Shown piece by piece: positions 8,228 to 64,000 of a DNA stretch of 64,000 nucleotides (the first letter of the stretch is position 1; every line of letters starts with the position of its first letter). The translations under genes and the position numbers were made by a program. The notes beneath the pieces were generated by a model that did no database searches, was not told where the DNA came from, and was given only the letters and a program-made list of their open reading frames with translations. Source of the DNA: Sphaerolaimus hirsutus (taxonomy: Eukaryota; Nematoda; Chromadorea; Monhysterida; Sphaerolaimidae); the NCBI GenBank assembly GCA_964036195.1, contig CAXIWS010000776.1, positions 16,251 to 80,250 of the forward strand, read 5' to 3'.

Positions 8228-8641
8228 CCGTATTTATTCGAAATACCCCCCTTGAATTAACCCCCCTCGATATACCCCCAGGTCTTAAGGGCTGGAAAAA
8301 TACCCCCCCCCCCACCCCGCGAAATACCTCTCTCCCCATCTTGGATAAGGTGCATCATGTATGCAATCAACATTATGTATTTATTTATTGCTGTGCATTC
8401 ACATCGCAGCTATAGCTAGACTTGTTTATGGGACGATCTACGAAAATATGAGCAAAATATGTCCTATTTGGTCACATTTATTACGTTTTGGGTACATAAA
8501 TACCTATGTTTTACTACAACTCTCCATAAAAATTTCTGATGAAATAATAACCACCCCCTCGAATAAGCCCCCTCAAAATATCTCCCTCAAAATTCCCACT
8601 CTGAAATATAAACCCCCTGGGGGTATTTCAAAGAAATATGG
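8228..8641. mobile_element. TA-target MITE, CCGTATTT ends
   Basis: The ends are CCGTATTTATTCGAAATACCCC and the inverse of CCATATTTCTTTGAAATACCCC, with TA on both sides. The right-hand end lies 13 bases from the donor of exon t. The mirror copy is 41958-42371. Confidence 0.75.
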
Positions 8642-9400
8642 TACACAAGCGCACATGGAAATTGGCAGTGAGCTGGCTCATGTCCCGCAGGACATCATCC
8701 TCCTCCCCCTGCTCATCAAACATGCCCATAAAGATTTCCACGCAAGCTGTTGGCAGAATCTTCATGAAGCGGGACGTTTTCAGCTGTTTCTGGCTCATGC
8801 ACGACTGCTCGAAGTGGAAAATGTGCTTCTTTTCACTGACTATGTCCACTGTGATTGTCTGTGAGGTATGAATTGTTTGACATTTTTGAAATGGACTTTT
8901 TTGAACCTATGTGTAGTTTTATTTATTCACACTATGTTTTCATTGGAGGAACAATATAAGATTGATTTTTTTTTCATTTTGCAGAAAGCTAAGAATCCGT
9001 GGAGCTTTTCCGAACCCATGACCAAGTGCCTCTAGTCTAGTCCTCTAGTCACTTTGCGGTGCCATGGGAAAATAGCACCAAGTGCCAGAGCAAAATGTTG
9101 CTTTTTCTGGACCGCACTGTTAATAGTGCCAAGGAAAAATGGTGTCAGCACCAAAAGCACCATGCTCTGGCACTGGCACCAAACATTGGCAGTTTTACAT
9201 CTCTAGAGTCTAGACACAAAACTCACCTGTCCACAAACAAGCCCCGGTGTGCAAGCAGCTTCAACCACTGCTCGCTTGGTGACGTTCCACTGGGCATCCC
9301 GGGCCACTGGCCTGCTGTCCCAGTAGTTCACTGCCAGCTGGGCAGCTGTGAATGGCTGCTCTGCTGGCTGCTGCCAGTCCCAGCTGGAGCGAACCTGGAA

Positions 9401-40400: not shown

Positions 40401-43400
40401 TTTATGTGGATGGGTTAAGATAGTTGTTATTTATGTGGATGGGATGGAAAAGTTTGAAGCGCCACAACTTTTGATCGGAAAGATATATTGAACTCATTTT
40501 TGTTTTACATTAATTCTCATTGTCTAAAGTATAAGATAGCATGTTCAGAACAATTTATGTTTCGTGTTGAAAAACCGGGTCAAATCGGCATACGGAATTT
40601 ACACATCACTAATACAACTACAAAAATGTAATCCGCAGGTTGTCCCGATCATTTTAAATGTTAAACGATCCAAATCGGCCCAGAAATGGCTGAGTTATTG
40701 AGCTTTCAATTCAAGATGCCAGATCGGACATGTAAAATAACCACGTTTTTATAGACCCCCTTATCTCGGGACTGGGGGATTTTTTGAGGAAAAAAAAATT
40801 TGGTCGTAGCCCCTACCTCAAACCCCAACATACTTGAACGGCATCAAAATTAGCCAACGTACAACAGTCTGGGACGACATGAAAGTTTGGTGGACCCCCC
40901 CCCCCTAAAATGCCACCCTTGATTTATGCTATGCTTCCAGGTTCGCTCCAGCTGGGACTGGCAGCAGCCAGCAGAGCAGCCATTCACAGCTGCCCAGCTG
41001 GCAGTGAACTACTGGGACAGCAGGCCAGTGGCCCGGGATGCCCAGTGGAACGTCACCAAGCGAGCAGTGGTTGAAGCTGCTTGCACACCGGGGCTTGTTT
41101 GTGGACAGGTGAGTTTTGTGTCTAGACTCTAGAGATGTAAAACTGCCAATGTTTGGTGCCAGTGCCAGAGCATGGTGCTTTTGGTGCTGACATCATTTTT
41201 CCTTGGCACTATTAACAGTGCGGCCCAGAAAAAGCAACATTTTGCTCTGGCACTTGGTGCTATTTTCCCATGGCACCGCAAACAAAAGTGACTAGAGGAC
41301 TAGACTAGAGGCACTTGGTCTTGGGTTCGGAAAAGCTCCACGGATTCTTAGCTTTCTGCAAAATGAAAAAAAAATCAATCTTATATTGTTCCTCCAATGA
41401 AAACATAGTGTGAATAAATAAAACTACACATACCGTATTTCCTCGAAATACCCCCCGGGGGGTGATTGTTTCAGAGTGAGAATTTTGAGAGAAAAACGTG
41501 AAAAATGCAACTATAACCACCATTTATAAGTTTTTACAGCATTATATAAGGATGTAGATGGTATAAACGGTGTTCAAACGTAACACAGTAAGTGTTTTGA
41601 ACATCTGTTATGCATTTCCCGGACCACAAATTCATAGTGCCGATTTTGAGGGGGGGTATTTCGAGGGGGGGTATTTCGAGGAAATACGGTAGGTTCAAAA
41701 AAGTCCATTTCAAAAATATCAAACAATTCATACCTCACAGACAATCACAGTGGACATAGTCAGTGAAAAGAAGCACATATTCCACTTCGAGCAGTCGTGC
41801 ATGAGCCAGAAACAGCTGAAAACGTCCCGCTTCATGAAGATTCTGCCAACAGCTTGCGTGGAAATCTTTATGGGCATGTTTGATGAGCAGGGGGAGGAGG
41901 ATGATGTCCTGCGGGACATGAGCCAGCTCACTGCCAATTTCCATGTGCGCTTGTGTACCATATTTCTTTGAAATACCCCCAGGGGGTTTATATTTCAGAG
42001 TGGGAATTTTGAGGGAGATATTTTGAGGGGGCTTATTCGAGGGGGTGGTTATTATTTCATCAGAAATTTTTATGGAGAGTTGTAGTAAAACATAGGTATT
42101 TATGTACCCAAAACGTAATAAATGTGACCAAATAGGATATATTTTGCTCATATTTTCGTAGATCGTCCCATAAACAAGTCTAGCTATAGCTGCGATGTGA
42201 ATGCACAGCAATAAATAAATACATAATGTTGATTGCATACATGATGCACCTTATCCAAGATGGGGAGAGAGGTATTTCGCGGGGTGGGGGGGGGGGTATT
42301 TTTCCAGCCCTTAAGACCTGGGGGTATATCGAGGGGGGTTAATTCAAGGGGGGTATTTCGAATAAATACGGTAGTTTTTAAAAATAGGGTGAGCAATTAT
42401 ATAAATGTTTTAAAAAATGGGGTGGTGTTTACACAAAAACAACAAACAGTTTAACAACAAATTTATTTAAGTTTCTTATTTCAAGGATCAAAGTTCTGTG
42501 TTTGTGAGAAAAGGCAGTGACCTATACATTGTCATTGCGACCACTGAGCTGCGACAACAGGAATTTTTTAAATGTCTATACCTTACGAGGAACAAGCACA
42601 AGTTATCAGAAACTTGGCATGTGTGTACAATCAAGTAGTATGTATACTTCACTGCCTTCTCTCACAAATACAGGACTTTTTCCTTGAAATCTGAAACATT
42701 AAAACCAAATTCTGAAACATTAAAGCACACACACCCCTCCTCATGCAGCTGCCGCGCGTGATGCCCATGGAGCTACTGGAGCACTACGCGCACCAGGTGG
42801 CAGTCCCAGACCCTGCAAAATGTCCTGTAAAATGTCAAATGTCATGCAATGTGCAACGATGGGTAAGCTCTCCAAAAAAGAACATAATCTGTGTTTTGAG
42901 TTTTTCAAAAATGAATACCTGTGTTTTGAGTTTTTTTTCTCGAAAACTCTGTTTTTATTTCTGTGTTTTTGTAAAAACTTGAGTTTTTTTAGGGGTTTTT
43001 TTGTTGAAAAAACTCGAGTTCTTTCCAAAAAAATAGAGTTTCCCCCCAAAGATTTTGATTTACACCATTTCGATCTGGAAACAGTGGTTTTCTTATAAAA
43101 TATTGGTTTTACACATCTTTTCACCCCACATAACATTTGTGTATTCATTAAGTTTTAAAAAAGTCCATCAAAATGTCCACAATGAGGACATTAACATCAC
43201 AACACCAGCAACAAAATGCCCAGAAACGACAATTTACACAGTACTCCAAAATTCTTCAATGGATGTGCACTGTATGGAAGACTACGGAATTGATTTGAAC
43301 TACAACTACCATTTATCTCGAAATACCCCCATGGGGATTTATTCTTTCATCAGAAAGTTTTGTAAGGCATTAAGAAAATAGTAGGCATTTACATACCCAA

Positions 43401-45709: not shown

Positions 45710-47376
45710 GAGGCATCTAGTTCCGAATGTCGTTAAGTCCATCATTTTGGATTTTTTCAAAATTGCATTTGAAATTTCAAAGTTGGCCCGAGCAGGCAAC
45801 TTTAAAGTGACAAGTCTTGCCCAAAACTTTTTGAAAAGCTTATGAATTTGTCTACATTTTCCATATTTTAAACCCTCTGGCCGGAATATATACTCATAGT
45901 TATGATGAGTTTTTTGACATCACCTCAGCAGATTCAGTGGAGATAACGAGTTTCGGGTGAAATTTCACTCGAATGTCGGTATCTCCACTTCCTATTTATT
46001 ACCTGTTCCACCTCATCATACCATATCTATAAGGTGTTAAAATTCATATATTGATGCTGGCATACTACACAAAGGACTTGCTATGTATAGCATTAATGGT
46101 GGGGAAATTATGCTTTTTTTATGTAGTGGCTCCAAAAGGCGCCATTTTTATGGAGTGGCGCCATGGACTCTGAAACGGCGCCATTTTTATGGAGTGGCGC
46201 CATGGACTCGGAAACGGCGCCATTTTTATGGAGTGGCGCCATTTCCTAGTCCATGGCGCCACTCCATAAAAAATGGCGCCATTCCCTAGTCCATGGCACC
46301 ACTCCATAAAAATGGCGCCGTTTCCATATCCATGGCGCCACTCAATAAAAATGGCGCCATTTCCTAGTCCATGGTGCCACTCAATAAAAATGGCGCCATT
46401 TCCTAGTCCATGGCGCACTCCGTTAAAATGGCGCCACTCCATAAAAATGGCGCCATTCCCTAGTCCATGGCGCCACTCAATAAAAAATGGCGCCGTTTCC
46501 ATATCCATGGCGCCACTCTATAAAAATGGCGCCATTTCCTAGTCCATTGCGCCACTCCATAAAAATGGCGCCGTTTCCATATCCATGGCGCCACTCAATA
46601 AAAATGGCGCCATTTCCTAGTCCATGGCGCCACTCAATAAAAATGGCGCCATTTCCTAGTCCATGGCGCCACTCCGTTAAAATGGCGCCATTTCCTAGTC
46701 CATGGCGCCACTCCATAAAAATGGCGACATTCCCTAGTCCATGGCGCCACTCCATAAAAATGGCGCCGTTTCCATATCCATGGCGCCACTCCATAAAAAT
46801 GGTGCCGTTTCCATGCCCATGGCGCCACTCCATAAGAAGCCACCCTATAAAAATGGTGTCATCTGAGAGTAAATCTATGAGTGGACATACCGACATTCGG
46901 ACAAAGATTTTTTGGAGATACCGACATTCGGAAAAAGTTTTTTTGGAGATAACGAGTTTCGAGTGATTTTTTCAAAAAACACGTTCAGATTTCTATACCG
47001 TAATTCGGATGATTTTTCCAATTTTGTATGGGGTTTTAGACCAATCTGTGCAATCTATACACCAATCTATACCGTAATTCGGAAATAGATTTCTGGCAGT
47101 GGAGATACCGAGTTTCGAGTGAAATAAATGTTGGCTTTTATTGGACATACCGAGATTCGAGTGAAATTTCATCAATTTCAGGGTGGACATAACGACATTC
47201 GGATGATTTTTTTTATTTTTTTCAAGAATCGGTGTCTCTGTATCTTGGGAATGGAGTGAGATATTGAGAAAAATTTTTTTCTATAATGAACAAATATATA
47301 TATGCATATATCAGATCTGCACCTAACTCATTTTTTGTCATTTTGGTCCTTACCGACATACGGAACTAGATGCCTC
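45710..47376. mobile_element. Right-arm-only AATT-target element with GGCGCC array
   Basis: The ends are GAGGCATCTAGTTCCGAATG and the inverse of GAGGCATCTAGTTCCGTATG, flanked by AATT (45706-45709, 47377-47380). Subterminal repeats read AACGAGTTTCGGGTG and ACCGACATTCGGA. The core (about 46135-46845) is a tandem array of GGCGCCATTTTTATGGAGT and its inverse GGCGCCACTCCATAAAAAT, switching direction near 46240. It inserted into the AATT that duplicates at the edge of the family A element at 47381. Long frames here are repeat artefacts. Confidence 0.85.
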
Positions 47377-54167: not shown

Positions 54168-54601
54168 CCGTATTACCTCGAATTATCCCCCCCCCTTGAA
54201 TTAACCCCCCCTCGAAATACCCCCCCCCCCTAAAATTCGGCTGAGGAAATAATAAACCCCCCCTCGAAATACCCCCCCTAACATTGAGTGTGAAGAGAAC
54301 GTACATGACAAACACCGCAGTTTGTGATCTGTACAATGCAGAACACACGTTAAAACTGAAGATTGAGTGACGTTAGGGAAGGGTTTATGTGTATATACAG
54401 TTATATATACCTATGAAGACATATATTTACATCTATGTGATTGTTCGATTTTTCTACGTCCGAGTATGGGGAATTTCCGAAAATTTCTGGCGAAATAATA
54501 GACCCCCCCCCTCGAATAAACCCCCCCCCCTCGAATTATCCCCCCCTCAAATTTTGCTGACGAAAAAATAAACCCCCTGGGGGTATTTCGAGGTAATACG
54601 G
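54168..54601. mobile_element. TA-target MITE, CCGTATTACC ends
   Basis: The ends are CCGTATTACCTCGAATTATC and the inverse of CCGTATTACCTCGAAATACC, with TA at 54166-54167 and 54602-54603. Confidence 0.85.
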
Positions 54602-55660: not shown

Positions 55661-56330
55661 GCGCAGCGAGCGGGGGATTAGTGAGCGTGACGGGGGTGTG
55701 CACATACGGCACACGGGGTGCGGCAAACACAAAGGGCGCAGAACAAAACACAATGGCTAGCTGTTTGTGTTTGGCCGCCAGTACCATTATTGATATCTTA
55801 ACACCCCCCCCCCCCGAAACAGATCACTCCGGCGCGTGTTGGCGTCAGCTGCGAGCAGCCGAAGGAAAAATGATGATTTTCAGCAAGCGCTTGACTGCGA
55901 GAGCCAAAGAAGTCATGTGGAATGTCAAATTTAAATGGATTATACCTTTTCGATAATCGTAAACAACTCTCAGACAATGGCAGAACAATGGATGACAATG
56001 GACAACCGGTCTGATACATGTTCTACTGCAGGAGTTGGTGTGTCGCGCAGATTTCAAACGTGTTATATCGATGTTAAATGGTGTGTTCCTTATAAAGCAC
56101 GACTCACTGATTATGGATCCGCTTAGAACTCGAAATAGACAAAATGGCAAAAATGTCCGCAAATGACTGTCTATCGCATAACACTATATTGTCTCATAAT
56201 ATAAAATTTTTTTAAATGTTGTGCGATCGCGCTTCAATTTGCCATGCGAATTTGAAAACACTTCCTGATATCGCATGCAAAAAATCACATTCCCAGGTCA
56301 TCTGTGTCAATAGTTATGACACCGGGCTAA
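55661..56330. other. Possible exon remnants, strand ambiguous
   Basis: Plus-strand sequence after CTACTGCAG (56030) is open as ELVCRADFKRVISMLNGVFL to a TGA near 56165, and 55820-55955 is open after CGAAACAG. The minus strand is equally open across both, so no gene is called. Confidence 0.25.
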
Positions 56331-56540
56331 TTCAACTTGTGCACAAGTAAATGGACTTTTGCTCGCGCACAATTACACTTGTAAGAATATCACTTGTGCA
56401 CAAGTAACTGCATTTGCGGAGACAGCTTTTTTGTTTCGTATACAAAGCAAAATATACTTGTGCACAAGTAAACATGACTTGTGGAGCTATTATTTTGTGG
56501 TATAAACAAAGCAAAATGCACTTGTGCACAAGTCCACGTG
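56331..56540. repeat. Four copies of palindrome ACTTGTGCACAAGT
   Basis: Perfect 14-base palindromes at 56335-56348, 56392-56405, 56456-56469 and 56520-56533, spaced 57, 64 and 64 bases. The last two lie in related units with TATACAAAGCAAAAT-type sequence. Degenerate forms recur to the end of the window. Confidence 0.8.
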
Positions 56541-57144
56541 ACTATCAGACCGGAGTACCGGAACTGTAATTAAATGAAATTTTCCGGTCCGCCATTGAAG
56601 TGTGTTGCGCATCGGCAAACTTAGGGGTGTAATTAAAGAGACATTATGTTGTGCACTAGTAGCTTATATCGCGCATCTCAAGTTCGATTTGGCTACTGAT
56701 AGAAATGCAAAAAAGAGGTCATAAATAGATGAAAACATAAGTACAAGTTCAGGAATCGTTGAATGTAACACACTTAGGTGCCGCAAATGAATAAATTTGC
56801 AAATGTAAACCACTAAGTAGCAAGTTACGTAAATTAAGCAGATTAATGCGTGTGAACTGGAAATAGAACACACGTTGTACTTAAAATGCACTTGCATATA
56901 TAAATAGAGCAATCGATAAGTGTTCCAGCGCACCCAACCCACTTTAATTACTCACTCGATGCATTTATCGATGAATATATGCAGTCAATTGTAGCAATGT
57001 GAAATAAGCAGATGTAGTGATTGGGGACATTTGGTGCAGAGAATTATTGACTGCATCAAATGCGGATTGTGCAAGTATAAATTTGTGTTGCAACTGGAAT
57101 GTGTGAAGTGTTTATTGGAAGTACAGGTGACACATTTCTAATTC
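56541..57144. other. AT-rich, no gene seen
   Basis: Unique-looking sequence with no supported gene. Confidence 0.4.
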
Positions 57145-57655
57145 AAATAGACATAAAATAAACAAACATTAGAGAATTAATTAGTAGGACATTGGTGAAC
57201 GTTTTACACCTTTTTGAAAACATTTTTCATATTTCAAGTCAAAGAGACTTGTGCACAACACATGTTACTAGTGCAGAAGTCAATTTTCCATAATCAACAT
57301 CAATCGCTTTGACTTGAAGCAGAGGTGATACGTTTTTGTTCGAATCAATCAAATTAAATCATTTTGTCAACAATTAGACTAGTGCACAAGTCACGTGTGT
57401 CGTGCACAAGTCGCCATGACTTGAAGCAGAGGTGATACGTTTTTGTTCAAATCAATCAAATTAAATCATTTTGTCAACAATTAGACTAGTGCACAAGTCA
57501 CGTGTGTCGTGCACAAGTCGCTTTGACTTGAAGCCGAGGAGATCAATAACAGAAACACGTCCATGCAATCTGTACATGATCTGACACGCTGGGAGCGTCC
57601 CCGTCGCTCATATCGGACACCTCGTTGGAGGTGACTAATGCCCAGCTAATTTTTC
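57145..57655 (+). repeat. Ribozyme-bearing direct repeat, copy 1
   Basis: Matches 58064-58361 from AAATAGACATAAAAT to CCCAGCTAATTTTTC. It has two extra tandem units of 107 bases (about 57319-57532), each containing GACTAGTGCACAAGTCACG. Confidence 0.85.
57578..57646 (+). ncRNA. HDV-like self-cleaving ribozyme motif, copy 1 (P1 mismatch)
   Basis: Same layout as the copy at 58283-58351. Strands: P1 57578-57584 with 57608-57614, P2 57588-57593 with 57641-57646, P3 57595-57597 with 57605-57607, P4 57618-57623 with 57628-57633. P1 has one C/U mismatch in its centre, so cleavage is probably weaker or lost. Confidence 0.6.
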
Positions 57656-58063
57656 TTCATTCCATCAATGACTATCATGTATTACTACATTATTTGTCTG
57701 CTTCAAGTCAAAACAACTTGTGCACGACACATGATACTTGTGCACTAGTTGTATTTCCTATAATATAAATCCGTGCAAATATGAGTGCACTGCAGCATGT
57801 TCTCATTGACATGTTCATGTTACTATTATGCTTATATTGAACTATTTAAATGGAATTTATTGTTTACCTCAGTTCAAAGCTGGCGTATGAATAAATAAAT
57901 AAATAAATAAATTATCATATTTATATACATAAATAAATTTATCAGTACTTGAATATATGGCGTGTTTAAATATACTAATTTTATACAATTTCAATCTTTG
58001 TTGTTAGAATCAGGGAGTAATTATTTAAACAATTTTTAATTTTATTTGTCAATATAAGTAATA
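57656..58063. other. Spacer between ribozyme repeats
   Basis: AT-rich. Contains one more degenerate TTGTGCAC repeat unit (57697-57810) of the family spread over 56.3-63.8 kb. Confidence 0.5.
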
Positions 58064-58361
58064 AAATAGACATAAAATTAACAAACATTAGAAAATTAAT
58101 TAGTAGGACATTGGTGAACGTCTTACACCTTTTTGAAAACATTTTTCATATTTCAAGTCAAAGAGACTTGTGCACAACACATGTTACTAGTGCAGAAGTC
58201 AATTTTCCATAATCAACATCAATCGCTTTGACTTGAAGCCGAGGAGATCAATAACAGAAACACGTCCATGCAATCTGTACATGATCTGACACGCTGGGAG
58301 CGTCCCCGTCGCTCAGATCGGACACCTCGTTGGAGGTGACTAATGCCCAGCTAATTTTTCT
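58064..58361 (+). repeat. Ribozyme-bearing direct repeat, copy 2
   Basis: About 298 bases, near-identical to copy 1 without its two 107-base tandem units. Lies just downstream of, and antisense to, the 3' end of the membrane-protein gene. Confidence 0.85.
58283..58351 (+). ncRNA. HDV-like self-cleaving ribozyme motif, copy 2 (intact)
   Basis: The nested double pseudoknot order is complete. P1 GATCTGA (58283-58289) pairs with TCAGATC (58313-58319). P2 GCTGGG (58293-58298) pairs with CCCAGC (58346-58351). P3 GCG (58300-58302) pairs with CGC (58310-58312) around loop TCCCCGT. P4 CACCTC (58323-58328) pairs with GAGGTG (58333-58338) around GTTG. GGA after P1 can give P1.1 with the loop Cs. J4/2 reads ACTAATG and holds the expected active-site C followed by UAA. 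P1 is 7 bp starting with G and P3 is 3 bp, as in the known family. Predicted cleavage is 5' of G58283. Not tested. Confidence 0.8.
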
Positions 58362-58464
58362 GATGTCAATTTCTGATTTCTGCTAATGTCAATATAAGTC
58401 ATTTTCACCAACTGCGCAAAATATACGGTCAAAATAATGGGCAAAATAACGAGGAACGAGGTAT
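58362..58464. other. 3' flank of membrane-protein gene
   Basis: Downstream of the stop codon on the minus strand. No clear AATAAA in the transcript sense was noted. Confidence 0.4.
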
Positions 58465-60359
58465 TTACACATGTTGAACAATATTTGGAACATGAGCCGC
58501 TTTCTTCTTGTTAATTAGAAAAATTAAAGCGGAAACAATTACAAAAACGATGATTGTCACTTGGACCACCAGCAGTACATCCGTGGCGGCAATGTGTCTG
58601 GACGACGGATTCTGGGAGAATGAACAGAGTGTGATTGAACTTTTTGGGAAATAGCATTGAATTAATCATTACACACACGCACACGCACACGCACACGCAC
58701 ACGCACACGCACACGCACACGCACACGCACACGCACACGCACACGCACACGCACACGCACACGCACACGCACACGCATACGCACACACACGCAGACACAC
58801 ACACGCACAGACACACACACGCACAGACACACACACGCACAGACACACACACGCACAGACACGCACACACGCACGCACGCACATGACTGGAAGTTATAAA
58901 AAAGCGAACTCACAACATCCTCAATAGTGACGGTGTCCATTTCGCCAATCGTGGTGAACAGCTTGGTGTACAGCTTGCACAGGTTAGTGCGACATGGCTT
59001 CGTGTCATTCTGTTCACCCATAGCGTCTTCCATCCCGTCGTTGTTGTTATGGGAACGCTGCACACGCAGTGCACCTGCAGTTCGAAATGAGACTGGACTG
59101 ATGCGTATGTGACAGTGTATTAACTTCTATTTGCATGCATTATATTATAGAAAATATTACTCTTGCACAAGTCGAATGTGTTGTGCACAAGTCATTTTGA
59201 CTCGAAACGGAAAAGACATTGCAAAATTGTATTTTAATTGATACGTAAGGATTGCATTCTAAACTCATCATTTTTGACAAAAGTTTGGATTTTACTTACG
59301 TTTAAATTCAAAAGCAAAACAAATTTACATATTTTTCAGCTTCAAGTAAAAATAACTTGTGCACAACACATAATACTTGTGCACTAGTCATATTTTGTAT
59401 AAAACATCGTAAATATTTACATGTTTAAAAATGTCTTAAAGGTGTTACACAATTATACGGAAAAATGAAGTGTTAATGAAGGAAATGTAATTAATTAATG
59501 AACAAATTACGCATTTTATGTAGTGTAACTGACCGTCATTGTCCAAAATTTGGTCTGTAACATTGACCAGCGCCCTGCGGGATCGACTGGCGTCATCGGT
59601 GACGTTGCGTGGTACAGATGGGGCGGGGGCGGGGGCGGGGGCGTCCGATTTGAGCAATGGAGCTGCGCAATGTAATTAGAATTACTCATTATGAATACAT
59701 TCATTCAAATATCTTGTGCAAAACATCTTGTTCACTAAAGAATAGGTCTAAATACAAAGTTGGTTGACAACAATAAATTTCATGTGCAAAAGTACTCGAT
59801 GAAGGCACAGCTTACCGTATTTCCTCGAAATACCCCCCCCCCCTCGTTTGACCCCCCCCTCTCGAGACCACTATGAAACAATCACCCCCCCCTCGAAATA
59901 CCCCCCCCCCCCAAATTGAGTGTAAAGGGAACGTACATGACAATAACTGTAGTTTGTGTTCAGTGTACTGCAGAACACACGTTAAAACACTGTCGGTGTC
60001 ACGTTAGAACAGTGTACATACCATCTACATACTAATATTAGTCTACAGAACCTTTTAAATTGCGGTTTTTGTTGCATTTTTCGACGTCTGCGTACGTTTC
60101 AGACGACAATTTCGTACTCGGTTTTCAAAAATTTTCTTGTGAAACAATAACCCCCCCTCGAAATACCCCCCCTCGTTTAACCCCCCCCCCCTCTCGGGAC
60201 CACTATGAAACAATCACCCCCCGGGGGGTATTTCGAGGAAATACGGTATGCTCAATTATAAAGATAAATATTCACCATAAAAAAATTGAACTGACCAATG
60301 CCGGCATACAGGGAAAAGAAGATGGTTGCCCACATAGCGCCGGAAAAAATGATGCCCAT
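58465..60359 (-). CDS. Small type I membrane protein, 166 residues, four exons
   Basis: Exons in order: 60296-60359, 59534-59662, 58914-59074, 58465-58611. Donors are GTCAGT, GTCAGT and GTGAGT; acceptors GCGCAG, CTGCAG and CTCCCAG. Phases 1, 1 and 0 match at all junctions. The start MGIIFSGAMWATIFFSLYAG is a signal-peptide-like segment. Then follow an Ala/Pro run (APAPAPAP), three sequons (NVT, NVT, NDT), two cysteines (KPCRTNLCKLY), a single hydrophobic helix (VLLVVQVTIIVFVIVSALIF, about residues 130-152), KKK as a stop-transfer signal, and a 13-residue tail ending in TAA. This predicts an extracellular N-terminus with a very short cytoplasmic tail. Family unknown. Introns hold a (CACACG)n microsatellite, TTGTGCAC repeats and a TA-target MITE. 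Confidence 0.85.
58670..58880. repeat. (CACACG)n microsatellite
   Basis: About 120 bases of near-perfect ACACGC hexamers, followed by CACACACACGCACAGA variants. It lies within the last intron of the membrane-protein gene. Open frames here are artefacts. Confidence 0.95.
59815..60246. mobile_element. TA-target MITE, CCGTATTTCC ends, in intron 1
   Basis: The TIR CCGTATTTCCTCGAAATACC lies at both ends with TA at 59813-59814 and 60247-60248. Same family as the right-arm-only insertions at 39255 and 41433. Confidence 0.9.
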
Positions 60360-60398
60360 CGTTTTTGTCGAAGCTGTCGTGCGTCGAAAAAATATATA

Positions 60399-60575
60399 CA
60401 ATTTGATCGCAAATGGTAGCTGAAAAAAATGAACGTTCCTTTTATGTCAGGAAAAACTCAAAGTGGTTGCCTAAGGCTACAAAAAAATAATGTCCATGAT
60501 CCATCAAATAAAATGAAATACTGGAATGTCATGCAGAGATAATCATCTTTTACTGCACCACAGGCAAAAGATTAC
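60399..60575 (+). repeat. 177-bp segment duplicated upstream of the membrane gene
   Basis: Near-identical to 61267-61443, from ACAATTTGATCGCAAATGG to TGCACCACAGGCAARAGATTA. This copy starts 40 bases upstream of the start codon of the 166-residue gene, so its promoter or 5' UTR may lie in duplicated sequence. Confidence 0.85.
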
Positions 60576-60763
60576 ATTTAGATTCAAAAGCAAACAAAAT
60601 ATACACAAATGTCTGTTTCAAGTCAAAATGACTTGTGCACAACACCTGTGACTTGTGCACTATTCGTATTTCCTATAGTATAAATAGATCCATGCAAGTA
60701 GAAGTGCGCTGCAACATGCGCAGTGCACTGGGACAGGTGTAAATTTGATACAAAGTGAAATTT
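60573..60763 (+). repeat. Inverted repeat, left half (about 190 bp)
   Basis: Reverse complement of 63602-63789 with about 95% identity by eye. Contains TTCAAGTCAAAATGACTTG, two TTGTGCAC motifs and GAAGTGCGCTGCAACATGCG. The pair encloses 2.8 kb. Confidence 0.85.
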
Positions 60764-61266
60764 AGTGCAAACGTAAGTGTAAACATGTGCATTGACCTAC
60801 ATAACTATTCCCTTCAAAGATAATTTGTCTATTGTTTAAGTAGAAAAAAATTGCGCATAAGTACATATTCTATAATGCATATAAATGCAATCGCGAGTAC
60901 ACTGAGACAAATGTAAGATTAATTTGCATGGGAATCTAGTGCAACCACCTTTGTCAGTGCATTGCGCATGTCGCAGTGCAGTCCTATTTGCACGGATGTA
61001 TATTGTGGGAAATTTGATTTGTGCACAAGTCGCATGTGTCGTGCACCAGTCACTTTGACTTGAAGCAGTAGACATCACGCAAAAAGCTGTCAAAAATATA
61101 TCCATGCAGATAGGAGTGCACTCAGGCTTGTGCAGTGCACTGAGACGGGTGTACATTTGATACGGGTGAATTTTAGTGCATGCACTGACGTATGTAAATG
61201 AAGCAGTTATGTATCAATGTAAATACAAAATTCACATTGCTTTTTTTACATTTCAAATCAATTCAT
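60764..61266. repeat. Degenerate TTGTGCAC / CAGTGCACTG repeats
   Basis: Two more divergent inverted units, at about 60950-61070 and 61090-61160, with GCAGTGCACTGAGACGGGTGT and GTGCACAAGTCGCATGTG. No gene seen. Confidence 0.55.
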
Positions 61267-61690
61267 ATACAATTTGATCGCAAATGGTAGCTGAAAAAAA
61301 TGAACGTTCCTTTTATGTCAGGAAAAACTCAAAGTGGTTGCCTAAGGCTACAAAAAAATAATGTCCATGATCCATCAAATAAAATGAAATACTGGAATGT
61401 CATGCAGAGATAATCATCTTTTACTGCACCACAGGCAAGAGATTAAGGCATTGTAGCAATCGCAATTATGACTGATTCCATAATGAGGAGAAATTCTGTA
61501 ATGTCATGCAGAGATAATCATCTTTTACTGCACCACAGGCAAAAGATTAAGGCATTTCAGCAATCGCAAATATGACTGATTCCATAATGAGGAGAAATTC
61601 TGGAATGTCATGCAGAGATAATCATCTTTTACTGCACCACAGGCAAGAGATTAAGCATTTGAGCAATCGCAATTATGACTGATTTTTATT
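61267..61690 (+). repeat. Duplicated segment followed by three tandem units of about 105 bp
   Basis: After the copy of 60399-60575, the unit beginning GAATGTCATGCAGAGATAAT and ending CATAATGAGGAGAAATTCT occurs about three times (61395-61680). Confidence 0.85.
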
Positions 61691-63601
61691 GTAGGTAACC
61701 CGCATGGCCAGCGTGCATTCGTCACTTTGAAAAAGATCAAGTGACAGTGGAATGATCAAACAAATGATCCGAATTTCTTACGAGTGCAACTTATATAAAA
61801 TATCAAAGACAATGCCGCCATTACAATCGCACTTGTGTAATAAAGGAAATTCCCACAATGCACAGCACAGCACAGTGTAATAAACCACAGCGGAAATTCT
61901 TTTGATCGATTTCACAAAAAGCGCCGCCAAAGGCAATGATTTATGACAACTTCATATTTAGCTGCAAGTACATATCGCGTCTGGTCATTGCTGCGCGGGT
62001 CCAAATTTGTTATTGACATGCTATACTTTTACGACCCTGAATTTGATTTACTGTAGGATCGTAAAGTTATCGGTTTATGACATGCAAAAGTTGCTTCATT
62101 TCTCCATCGAATGTAAAACAATGAAATATTTGTGTTCACGACAGCACGAAATTTACATCAGATTTATATGACTCGCGCACAAGTCACATGTGTTCTGCAC
62201 AAGTTATTTTCAATTCGAGCATGAGAAAAAGTGTGTTTAAATCGATATAGTTGTCCCAGTGCACTGCGCATGTTGCAGCGCACTTCTATTTGCATGGATG
62301 CATATTTTAGGAAATATGACACGTGCAAAAGTCGTTTGGACTTGAAGCACAAAAAACATCGGAAAAACATGTCAAAAATACATCCATGCGAATAGAAGTG
62401 CGCTCCGACTTGTGCATTGCACTGAGGTAGGTGTCCATTTTAAGCGCTTTTAAATAATTTGGTAGCACTGTAATAATAATTTTTGGCATGTGTCTAATTA
62501 ATAAAAATTTGACTAGTGCACAAGTTGCATGTCTCGTGCCCGAATCTTTATGTCAGTGTATTTACTTATATTTATCTTTTGAAAAAATTTCTCTTCTTAT
62601 TAAATTTTGTAACTGTCTCAATGTACTGCAATGTTTCTGTGCACTCATGCCAAAATGTTATGTCAAAGTATATGTAAGTGCATTATACTCGTGCACAAGT
62701 CGCAAGTTTTGTGCACAAGTCATATTGTTTGTACAGTGTATCCATACAAATGGGAGTGCGCTGCGACATGCGCAATAAATTTTATACCTGTCTCAGTGCA
62801 CTGCGCATGTAGCAGTGCACAGCCATTTGCATGGATGCATCTCTGATGCATTTTTGAACTCTGATTCCTTTATTTTGACTGGGGAATAATTCATTGTGTG
62901 CATAGTATAGTGTTGCGAATGAATATCTTTATGACATTCCATTTTCTGAATATTTGTACAGTGTATGCGCACCATGGGTCAATGTAAATATGTTAATGTT
63001 CAATAAGTAGTTACAATTGTGAGTTTTTCATATTTTGCGTACATTCGTTTCCTTTTCGTCTACATTAATTTACACAAATGTAGTCTGCACAAATTCACTC
63101 ATTTCACAGGAAAAAAATTGTTACTCAATTCACTACCCATTTCGTGGTAATCGACAAACGAGGGCAACAGGATCCTGTGCTTTCTGCAGCTGAATTTTCA
63201 GGTTTGCTATCATTTTAATGATACGTTTATTGGTTATTTGCGGTAATGTCGCAGTGCACTCCTATCTGCATGGATATATTTTTGTTAGTTTCAATTTAAA
63301 AAAACTTGTGCGCAAGTCATATGACTGGTGCACTAGTCACATTGTGTATGGTGCACATTCATGCACGCAGGACTGCGCTGCGACTTGTGCAGTGCACTGA
63401 CAAAGGAGTGTGCATCATTAGGACAAAAGTGCATTAGTACAACAGTAGTTTTTATACAACAAAGGTGCTCATTAGGACAAAAGATGGTTTTTTACAACGG
63501 ATGTCGCTTTTATACAACGCGTGTTGCTTTAGTACAACAAATGTCGCAACAAATTATTTTATAACATGATTATCATTACAAAATATAATTTTAAGTTTTC
63601 G
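61691..63601. repeat. Scattered TTGTGCAC-family repeats, no gene seen
   Basis: Units at about 62160-62410, 62510-62840 and 63240-63410 contain CAGTGCACTGCGCATGT and TGTGCACAAGTC in both orientations. Bases 63420-63550 repeat TAGTACAACA and TTTATACAAC. Short frames are repeat-derived. Confidence 0.55.
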
Positions 63602-63789
63602 TTCTACAAAGTATCAAATTTACACCTCTCCCAGTGCACTGCGCATTTTGCAGCGCACTTTTACTTGCACGGATCTATTTATACTATAGGAAATACGAAT
63701 AGTGCACAAGTCACAGGTGTTGTGCACAAGTTATTTTGACTTGAAACAGACATTTGTCTATATTTTGTTTGCTTTTGAATCTAAATGTA
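63602..63789 (-). repeat. Inverted repeat, right half (about 190 bp)
   Basis: Mirror of 60573-60763. Ends near AATCTAAATGTAA, matching TTACATTTAGATT at the other end. Confidence 0.85.
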
Positions 63790-64000
63790 AGTGTAATCCT
63801 CAATTTTTTTCAAATATGCATGAAAGCACAAAATTTAAACTCATTGAACGTGTGTCAAAAGTGTATTCAACAGAACATAACTAACATGAAAATTTCGATG
63901 GATTTTGAGAATTTGAAACATGACATCCTTAAAGCTATTCCGATAGCTAGAATGAGCTAGATATTTAAATACTTTAGATAACATGAGATTGTTTTAGATG
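63790..64000. other. Window end, no gene seen
   Basis: AT-rich; a 68-codon frame at 63754-63960 overlaps the repeat and has no support. Confidence 0.4.

What the first reader, a model, noticed from the sequence alone, without database searches (positions are those of the whole stretch)
58283..58351. Intact HDV-like self-cleaving ribozyme in a non-viral repeat
Seen: all strands of the HDV-like nested double pseudoknot occur in the right order and spacing, with a 7-bp P1 starting with G, a 3-bp P3 with a C-rich loop, possible P1.1, a 6-bp P4, and a C-UAA joining segment before P2. Known: this fold defines the HDV-like ribozyme family, found in retrotransposons and scattered genomic sites. Inference: the surrounding TTGTGCAC repeat family makes an RNA processed at G58283. 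The host repeat does not resemble any ribozyme-bearing element I can name.
Basis: partly seen in the sequence, partly recalled or inferred. Interest (0 to 1): 0.88.

Follow-up and report, generated by a model that had tools for sequence, protein, structure and literature searches.

The report
HDV-like ribozyme inside DNA transposon ends
A large jumping DNA element of an invertebrate animal carries, near its ends and pointing inward, a short sequence with every part of an HDV-type self-cutting RNA, a kind of RNA so far reported mainly from elements that jump by way of RNA; the cutting itself has not been tested.

Summary
58283-58351 (+) has P1 (7 bp), P2 (6), P3 (3) and P4 (6), all Watson-Crick, two G's for P1.1, an HDV/CPEB3-type L3 (UCCCCGU) and J4/2 A-C-UAA-UG. 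A strict descriptor finds this one site in the window and 7 in 950 Mb of random sequence; a tighter one 0 in 1.84 Gb. Rfam does not recognise it.

The host repeat is a DNA transposon with two terminus types facing each other. Exact 9-bp target-site duplications occur in 4 of 5 end pairs; pair sizes run from 0.7 to 62 kb. The 348-Mb invertebrate genome holds 51 ribozyme places; 44 lie 1.45-3.6 kb inside a terminus, pointing inward. In the window the terminus is at 56008, and a second copy at 57578 has a broken P1.

Best explanation: a cleavage-competent HDV-like ribozyme that would cut inward-running transposon transcripts before G58283. Cleavage and role are inferred. Copies are too alike to test covariation, and the ribozyme is no more conserved than its flank. 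HDV-like ribozymes are documented for retrotransposons; my searches found none in a terminal-inverted-repeat DNA transposon. New variant of a known kind.

The parts
58283..58351 (+). HDV-like ribozyme, intact copy; predicted cleavage just before G58283; catalytic C would be C58340
58283..58289 (+). P1 5' strand GATCTGA
58293..58298 (+). P2 5' strand GCTGGG
58300..58312 (+). P3 (GCG/CGC) with L3 TCCCCGT
   Evidence: L3-P3 compared with the mouse Cpeb3 primer in PMC10919898
58313..58319 (+). P1 3' strand TCAGATC
58320..58321 (+). GG, possible P1.1 with CC of L3
58323..58338 (+). P4 hairpin CACCTC-GTTG-GAGGTG
58339..58345 (+). J4/2 ACTAATG, with C58340
58346..58351 (+). P2 3' strand CCCAGC
57578..57646 (+). 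second ribozyme copy, P1 broken by G to T at position 34
58249..58282 (+). 34-nt leader that accompanies the ribozyme at all 51 genome places found (50 exact, 1 with one mismatch)
58352..58361 (+). TAATTTTTCT, last stretch shared before copies diverge into two downstream contexts
57485..57749 (.). inverted arms 57485-57537 and 57697-57749 (53 nt, 89% complementary) that flank ribozyme copy 1
   Evidence: I24
56008..64000 (+). part of the host DNA transposon held in the window, from its type-B terminus to the contig end
58465..59072 (-). two exons (59072-58914 and 58611-58465) of a membrane-protein gene of the element, antisense to the ribozyme; splice sites read by eye

Best explanation
58283-58351 is an HDV-like self-cleaving ribozyme carried in the subterminal region of a terminal-inverted-repeat DNA transposon. 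Both ends of the transposon read inward into such a copy, so RNA that enters the element from outside, or starts at its end, would fold the nested double pseudoknot and be cut between U58282 and G58283, leaving a 5'-OH RNA that begins with the ribozyme. Shown: the fold in sequence, the copies, the termini, the target-site duplications, the inward orientation. Inferred: transcription, cleavage, and the role (trimming or inactivating inward transcripts near the ends).
For: All strands in order and all 22 helix pairs Watson-Crick. Strict descriptor 7 in 950 Mb random, tight descriptor 0 in 1.84 Gb. L3-P3 reads UCCCCGU-CGC; a mouse Cpeb3 primer starting 18 nt from its cleavage site reads GTTCACGTCGC, i.e. 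the same U-C-CGU-CGC spacing (PMC10919898, passage). 51 genome places of the 3' half, 40 exact and 11 with one mismatch. 44 of 51 lie 1454-3588 nt inside a terminus and on its strand, and 29 of 39 termini have a copy behind them. Two terminus types; exact 9-bp target-site duplications in 4 of 5 convergent A/B pairs: 0.7, 2.8, 13 and 62 kb. The 62-kb element on contig C9 has one copy behind its left end and two behind its right end.
Against: Rfam finds nothing at gathering scores in the window and nothing at E up to 10 on the 91 nt. No compensatory change exists among the copies. The ribozyme shows 5 variable sites in 69 against 9 in 270 of the downstream flank, so no extra constraint is visible. 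9 of 51 places have P1 broken. 10 of 39 termini have no ribozyme behind them, and elements of 0.7, 2.8 and 13 kb with target-site duplications lack it, so it is not needed for transposition in trans. The C3 39-kb end pair has no target-site duplication. No sense gene was found just downstream; a gene of the element runs antisense.
Confidence: 0.75

Rival explanations
1. Passenger or relic: an active HDV-like ribozyme, perhaps first from a retrotransposon 5' end, was captured once by this transposon and has been copied with it, without serving it.
For: Evolves like its flank (5/69 against 9/270 variable sites). Short elements without it have moved. The leader and ribozyme occur nowhere else in the genome at up to 3 mismatches. 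HDV-like ribozymes of animals are described at 5' ends of retrotransposons (PMC8256844, passages).
Against: 44 of 51 copies hold the same inward position at both kinds of end, although duplication together with the ends would give that too; no retrotransposon source was found.
Confidence: 0.5
2. Retrozyme-like use: pairs of same-sense ribozymes exactly 705 nt apart would release a 705-nt RNA that could be ligated to a circle.
For: 11 pairs at exactly 705 nt, same strand. Animal retrozymes make small circular RNAs from paired hammerheads (PMC7761336, passages).
Against: In 8 of the 11 pairs the upstream copy has the P1-breaking change, including this window; the spacing is one duplication inherited by many elements; no RNA evidence.
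Confidence: 0.07
3. Chance fold: the copies are identical because the transposon is young, so there is effectively one sequence that happens to match.
For: No covariation is available; Rfam silent; a 348-Mb genome read on both strands would give about 5 chance hits to the strict descriptor by the rate.
Against: Expected about 0.001 in the two strands of this window at that rate; 0 of 1.84 Gb under the tight descriptor; L3 and P3 also match CPEB3, which the descriptors did not ask for.
Confidence: 0.08
4. The unit is a fragment of a protein-coding exon, on either strand.
For: GC-rich, with short open frames on both strands (35 aa on +, about 38 aa on -).
Against: The + peptide finds only the same 51 places in the genome (51 candidates, 51 scored); locally the first - peptide finds only the copies themselves plus weak hits at E of 1.9 and above. 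A third peptide matched the TTGTGCAC arms, not another gene. The - peptides were not searched genome-wide.
Confidence: 0.03

Closest known systems
CPEB3 ribozyme of mammals (Rfam RF00622)
   Same: 69 nt long (PMC9901934, passage), 3-bp P3, L3 of the form U-C-CGU followed by CGC (PMC10919898 primer), P4 hairpin, catalytic C near position 57-58.
   Different: P1, P2 and P4 sequences differ; CPEB3 is one intronic copy, here 51 transposon copies; the RF00622 model does not hit this site. Its best hits in this genome match the P4 hairpin only.
HDV-like ribozymes at the 5' end of R2, L1Tc and other non-LTR retrotransposons
   Same: Same fold, mobile-element host, position near an element end and pointing into the element (PMC8256844, passages).
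   Different: Host here has terminal inverted repeats and 9-bp target-site duplications, with ribozymes behind both ends; no reverse-transcriptase frame was seen in the open frames listed for 56-64 kb of the window and the 17 kb joined on C16.
Retrozymes (paired hammerheads, circular RNAs)
   Same: Non-coding unit with same-sense self-cleaving RNAs about 0.7 kb apart in 11 places.
   Different: HDV-like, not hammerhead; the upstream copy is mostly broken; DNA-transposon host (PMC7761336, passages).
Mutator-like DNA transposons
   Same: 9-bp target-site duplications, long inverted ends, very variable length, carried genes (superfamily traits recalled, not from a call).
   Different: Transposase not identified; Merlin-like and other families with similar duplications are not excluded.

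Membership tests
HDV-like ribozyme | Nested double pseudoknot: P1, P2, P3, P1', P4, P2' in order and spacing | tested here: met
HDV-like ribozyme | G at the first base of P1, C in J4/2 followed by purine-A | tested here: met
   G58283; C58340-U-A-A
HDV-like ribozyme | P1.1 pairing between L3 and the bases after P1 | tested here: met
   CC of L3 with GG 58320-58321, by sequence only
HDV-like ribozyme | Covariation of helices among homologues | tested here: inconclusive
   Only 5 variable sites in 16 haplotypes, none compensatory, one breaking P1
HDV-like ribozyme | Self-cleavage with 5'-OH product | not testable with these tools
   needs the bench
Rfam HDV_ribozyme RF00094 and CPEB3 RF00622 (sequence families) | Model score | tested here: not met
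   No match at E up to 10 on the site; RF00094 none in the genome; RF00622 four sub-threshold hits elsewhere, P4 only. Not filed here.
Ribozyme-bearing non-LTR retrotransposon | Reverse-transcriptase frame downstream, no terminal inverted repeats | tested here: not met
   Inverted termini and 9-bp duplications; no such frame among listed frames, not searched with a model
Terminal-inverted-repeat DNA transposon | Discrete ends against unrelated flanks, inverted to each other | tested here: met
Terminal-inverted-repeat DNA transposon | Target-site duplication of fixed length | tested here: met
   9 bp exact in 4 of 5 pairs; C3 pair none
Mutator-like transposon | MULE transposase | not tested
   Family search not answered
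Retrozyme | Circular RNA between two active ribozymes | not testable with these tools
   no RNA data; 8 of 11 upstream partners have broken P1

The most novel reading that the evidence does not exclude
A cut-and-paste DNA transposon uses self-cleaving RNA in its own life cycle: HDV-like ribozymes set behind both inverted ends cut every transcript that runs inward from the host or from end-located promoters, giving the element control over its RNA, as 5' ribozymes do for retrotransposons.
Probability: 0.3. Interest if true: 0.85.

Novelty: new variant of a known kind. Interest (0 to 1): 0.62.

Why it matters
HDV-like ribozymes in animal genomes are usually explained by retrotransposons, where the cut sets the 5' end of the RNA that is copied. 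A DNA transposon does not move through RNA, so an inward ribozyme behind both of its ends needs another explanation: transcript control, silencing of host read-through, or capture. The young, nearly identical copies, with both broken and intact versions in one genome, make that testable. It would also add a host class to the spread of HDV-like ribozymes.

Tried and rejected
Host first guessed to be a sponge: dropped. The mitochondrial COX1 (contig C762) reads TGA inside the frame 14 times; where my reading under table 4 gives Arg, the usual animal COX1 (recalled) has Ser, which fits the invertebrate code; the best named database matches in the listed 120 are insects at about 65-67% identity, and unnamed records reach 89%. 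I say only: an invertebrate without a close named match there.

CPEB3-model hits elsewhere in the genome (best E 0.0118): the alignments match the P4 hairpin with the core missing, so rejected. mir-7445 matches (E 0.66 and above) come from the palindromic arms. No tRNA in the window.

RNA search beyond the genome: exact pieces of the ribozyme give 0 in viral contigs and 0 in genome contigs, both prokaryote- or virus-centred.

Interior of the ribozyme-free 13-kb element: 6 kb read, no recognisable transposase among its frames by eye.

Not achieved: RF01788, PF10551, PF24664, PF03175 and the 57657-57767 DNA search did not complete.

Full report
What is there. The 22 helix pairs are all Watson-Crick. 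A copy at 57578-57646 differs only at position 34 (G to T), which leaves a C-U mismatch in P1.

Chance. A loose descriptor is useless. A strict one finds only this site in the window and 7 in 950 Mb of random sequence with the window's order-2 composition; a tighter one 0 in 1.84 Gb. I chose the ranges after seeing the site. Two features that I did not ask for also agree: P3/L3 matches CPEB3, whose cleaved-form primer in mouse reads GTTCACGTCGC from 18 nt after the cut (PMC10919898, passage seen), against G-TCCCCGT-CGC here; and L3 keeps the U and G that form the HDV L3 wobble (recalled).

Models. No Rfam family reaches its gathering score in the window and none reaches E 10 on the 91 nt around the site. 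The displayed CPEB3 alignment pairs only the P4 hairpin in its shown columns, so such a model is a poor detector of a diverged member. RF00094 finds nothing in the genome.

Copies. The window is part of contig C656 of a 348-Mb assembly. A 37-nt pattern from the 3' half, up to 3 mismatches, hits 51 places: 40 exact and 11 with one mismatch (9 the P1-breaking change, 1 in L4, 1 turning a P2 G-C into G-U) (recount). The 34 nt before the cut hit the same number, 50 exact and 1 with one mismatch. Among the loci held there are 16 distinct haplotypes: 5 variable sites in the 69 nt, 1 in the leader of 34, and 9 in 270 nt of the downstream flank over its 6 gap-free haplotypes, a seventh with an indel left out. 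So there is neither covariation nor visible extra constraint.

Host element. Long blocks around the site recur at up to 99.65% identity over 12.3 kb between chromosome-sized contigs C16 and C9. They end abruptly against unrelated flanks, with two alternative terminal words, A (GGGCGCACCATGT) and B (GGTCTRATACATGT). A pattern spanning both hits 39 places. Five neighbouring convergent pairs consist of one A and one B, 0.7, 2.8, 13, 39 and 62 kb apart; four of the five have an exact 9-bp duplication of the target, the 39-kb pair on C3 does not. The 62-kb duplication (CAGTTTTTC) lies in a repetitive flank, so taken alone it is weaker. This is a DNA transposon with inverted ends. Its superfamily is open because transposase searches did not complete.

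Position of the ribozyme. 44 of 51 places lie 1454-3588 nt behind a terminus on the same strand; 29 of 39 termini have at least one. The seven others: six are a second context (C4 twice, C11, C16, C426, C471; loci L004, L006, L013, L014, L018, L064), one (C215) is 2 kb from a contig end. In the window the terminus is at 56008 and the two cleavage sites are 1570 and 2275 nt inside it. Elements of 0.7, 2.8 and 13 kb with target duplications have no place in the list, so the ribozyme is not needed for movement, at least in trans.

Local architecture. Copy 1 sits between inverted arms (57485-57537 and 57697-57749). Copy 2 is followed directly by the end of a gene on the other strand, whose two last exons (59072-58914, 58611-58465, splice sites by eye) encode a membrane-spanning tail. 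In the second context a frame with a class III viral fusion glycoprotein domain (PF24664, E 5.5e-15) lies upstream on the ribozyme strand. These stretches were only described.

How it most likely works. Inferred from the anatomy: transcription that runs into the element, or from a promoter in its end, passes the ribozyme after 1.5-2.6 kb in most copies; the RNA folds, cuts before G58283, and the downstream RNA starts with a 5'-OH ribozyme while the upstream piece loses its tail. That would uncouple the interior from host transcripts. None of this has been measured. The simplest competitor is that the ribozyme is active but a passenger.

Tandem copies. Eleven same-strand pairs lie exactly 705 nt apart; in 8 of them, this window included, the upstream copy has the broken P1. 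A 705-nt RNA would therefore be released from few elements at best.

Known context. A review lists HDV-like ribozymes in mosquito, Drosophila, sea urchin, lamprey, lancelet, nematodes, an insect virus and a bacterium, and at 5' ends of R2 and L1Tc retrotransposons (PMC8256844, passages). Descriptor searches for such ribozymes in sea urchin and mosquito are described in PMC4870747 (passages). Listings for HDV-like or self-cleaving ribozymes with MITE, DNA transposon or terminal inverted repeat terms gave only R2 papers, a curation guide and an unrelated paper. The library lacks most subscription papers, so absence there is weak evidence.

Verdict. Observation confirmed; ribozyme likely; the DNA-transposon host is the new part; activity and purpose are open.

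Noticed in passing
L061:8486-10000 (-), contig C16; second ribozyme context: A 505-aa open stretch with a Monjiviricetes fusion glycoprotein domain (PF24664, E 5.5e-15; Glycoprotein_B 5e-4, below its cut-off) lies about 3.5 kb upstream of the ribozyme on the same strand. Described only.
   Followed up: partly
C9:24394576-24395282 (L083): A 0.7-kb, nearly palindromic element with A and B ends and a 9-bp duplication (TGTGAACTG): a miniature form without the ribozyme.
   Followed up: partly
window 59837-60190 and 54186-54570: C-rich units of the form CCCCCCCTCGAAATA recur in the window, and similar stretches on C16 and C14 match 39.2-39.7 kb of the window.
   Followed up: no
window 8361-8864 (+) and 41735-42238 (-): The same 167-aa open frame occurs twice in inverted orientation, with few differences; Pfam gives no family for the second copy.
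   Followed up: no
window 46119-46966: Tandem coding-like repeat of the form MAPFPSPWRHSIK, open on both strands.
   Followed up: no
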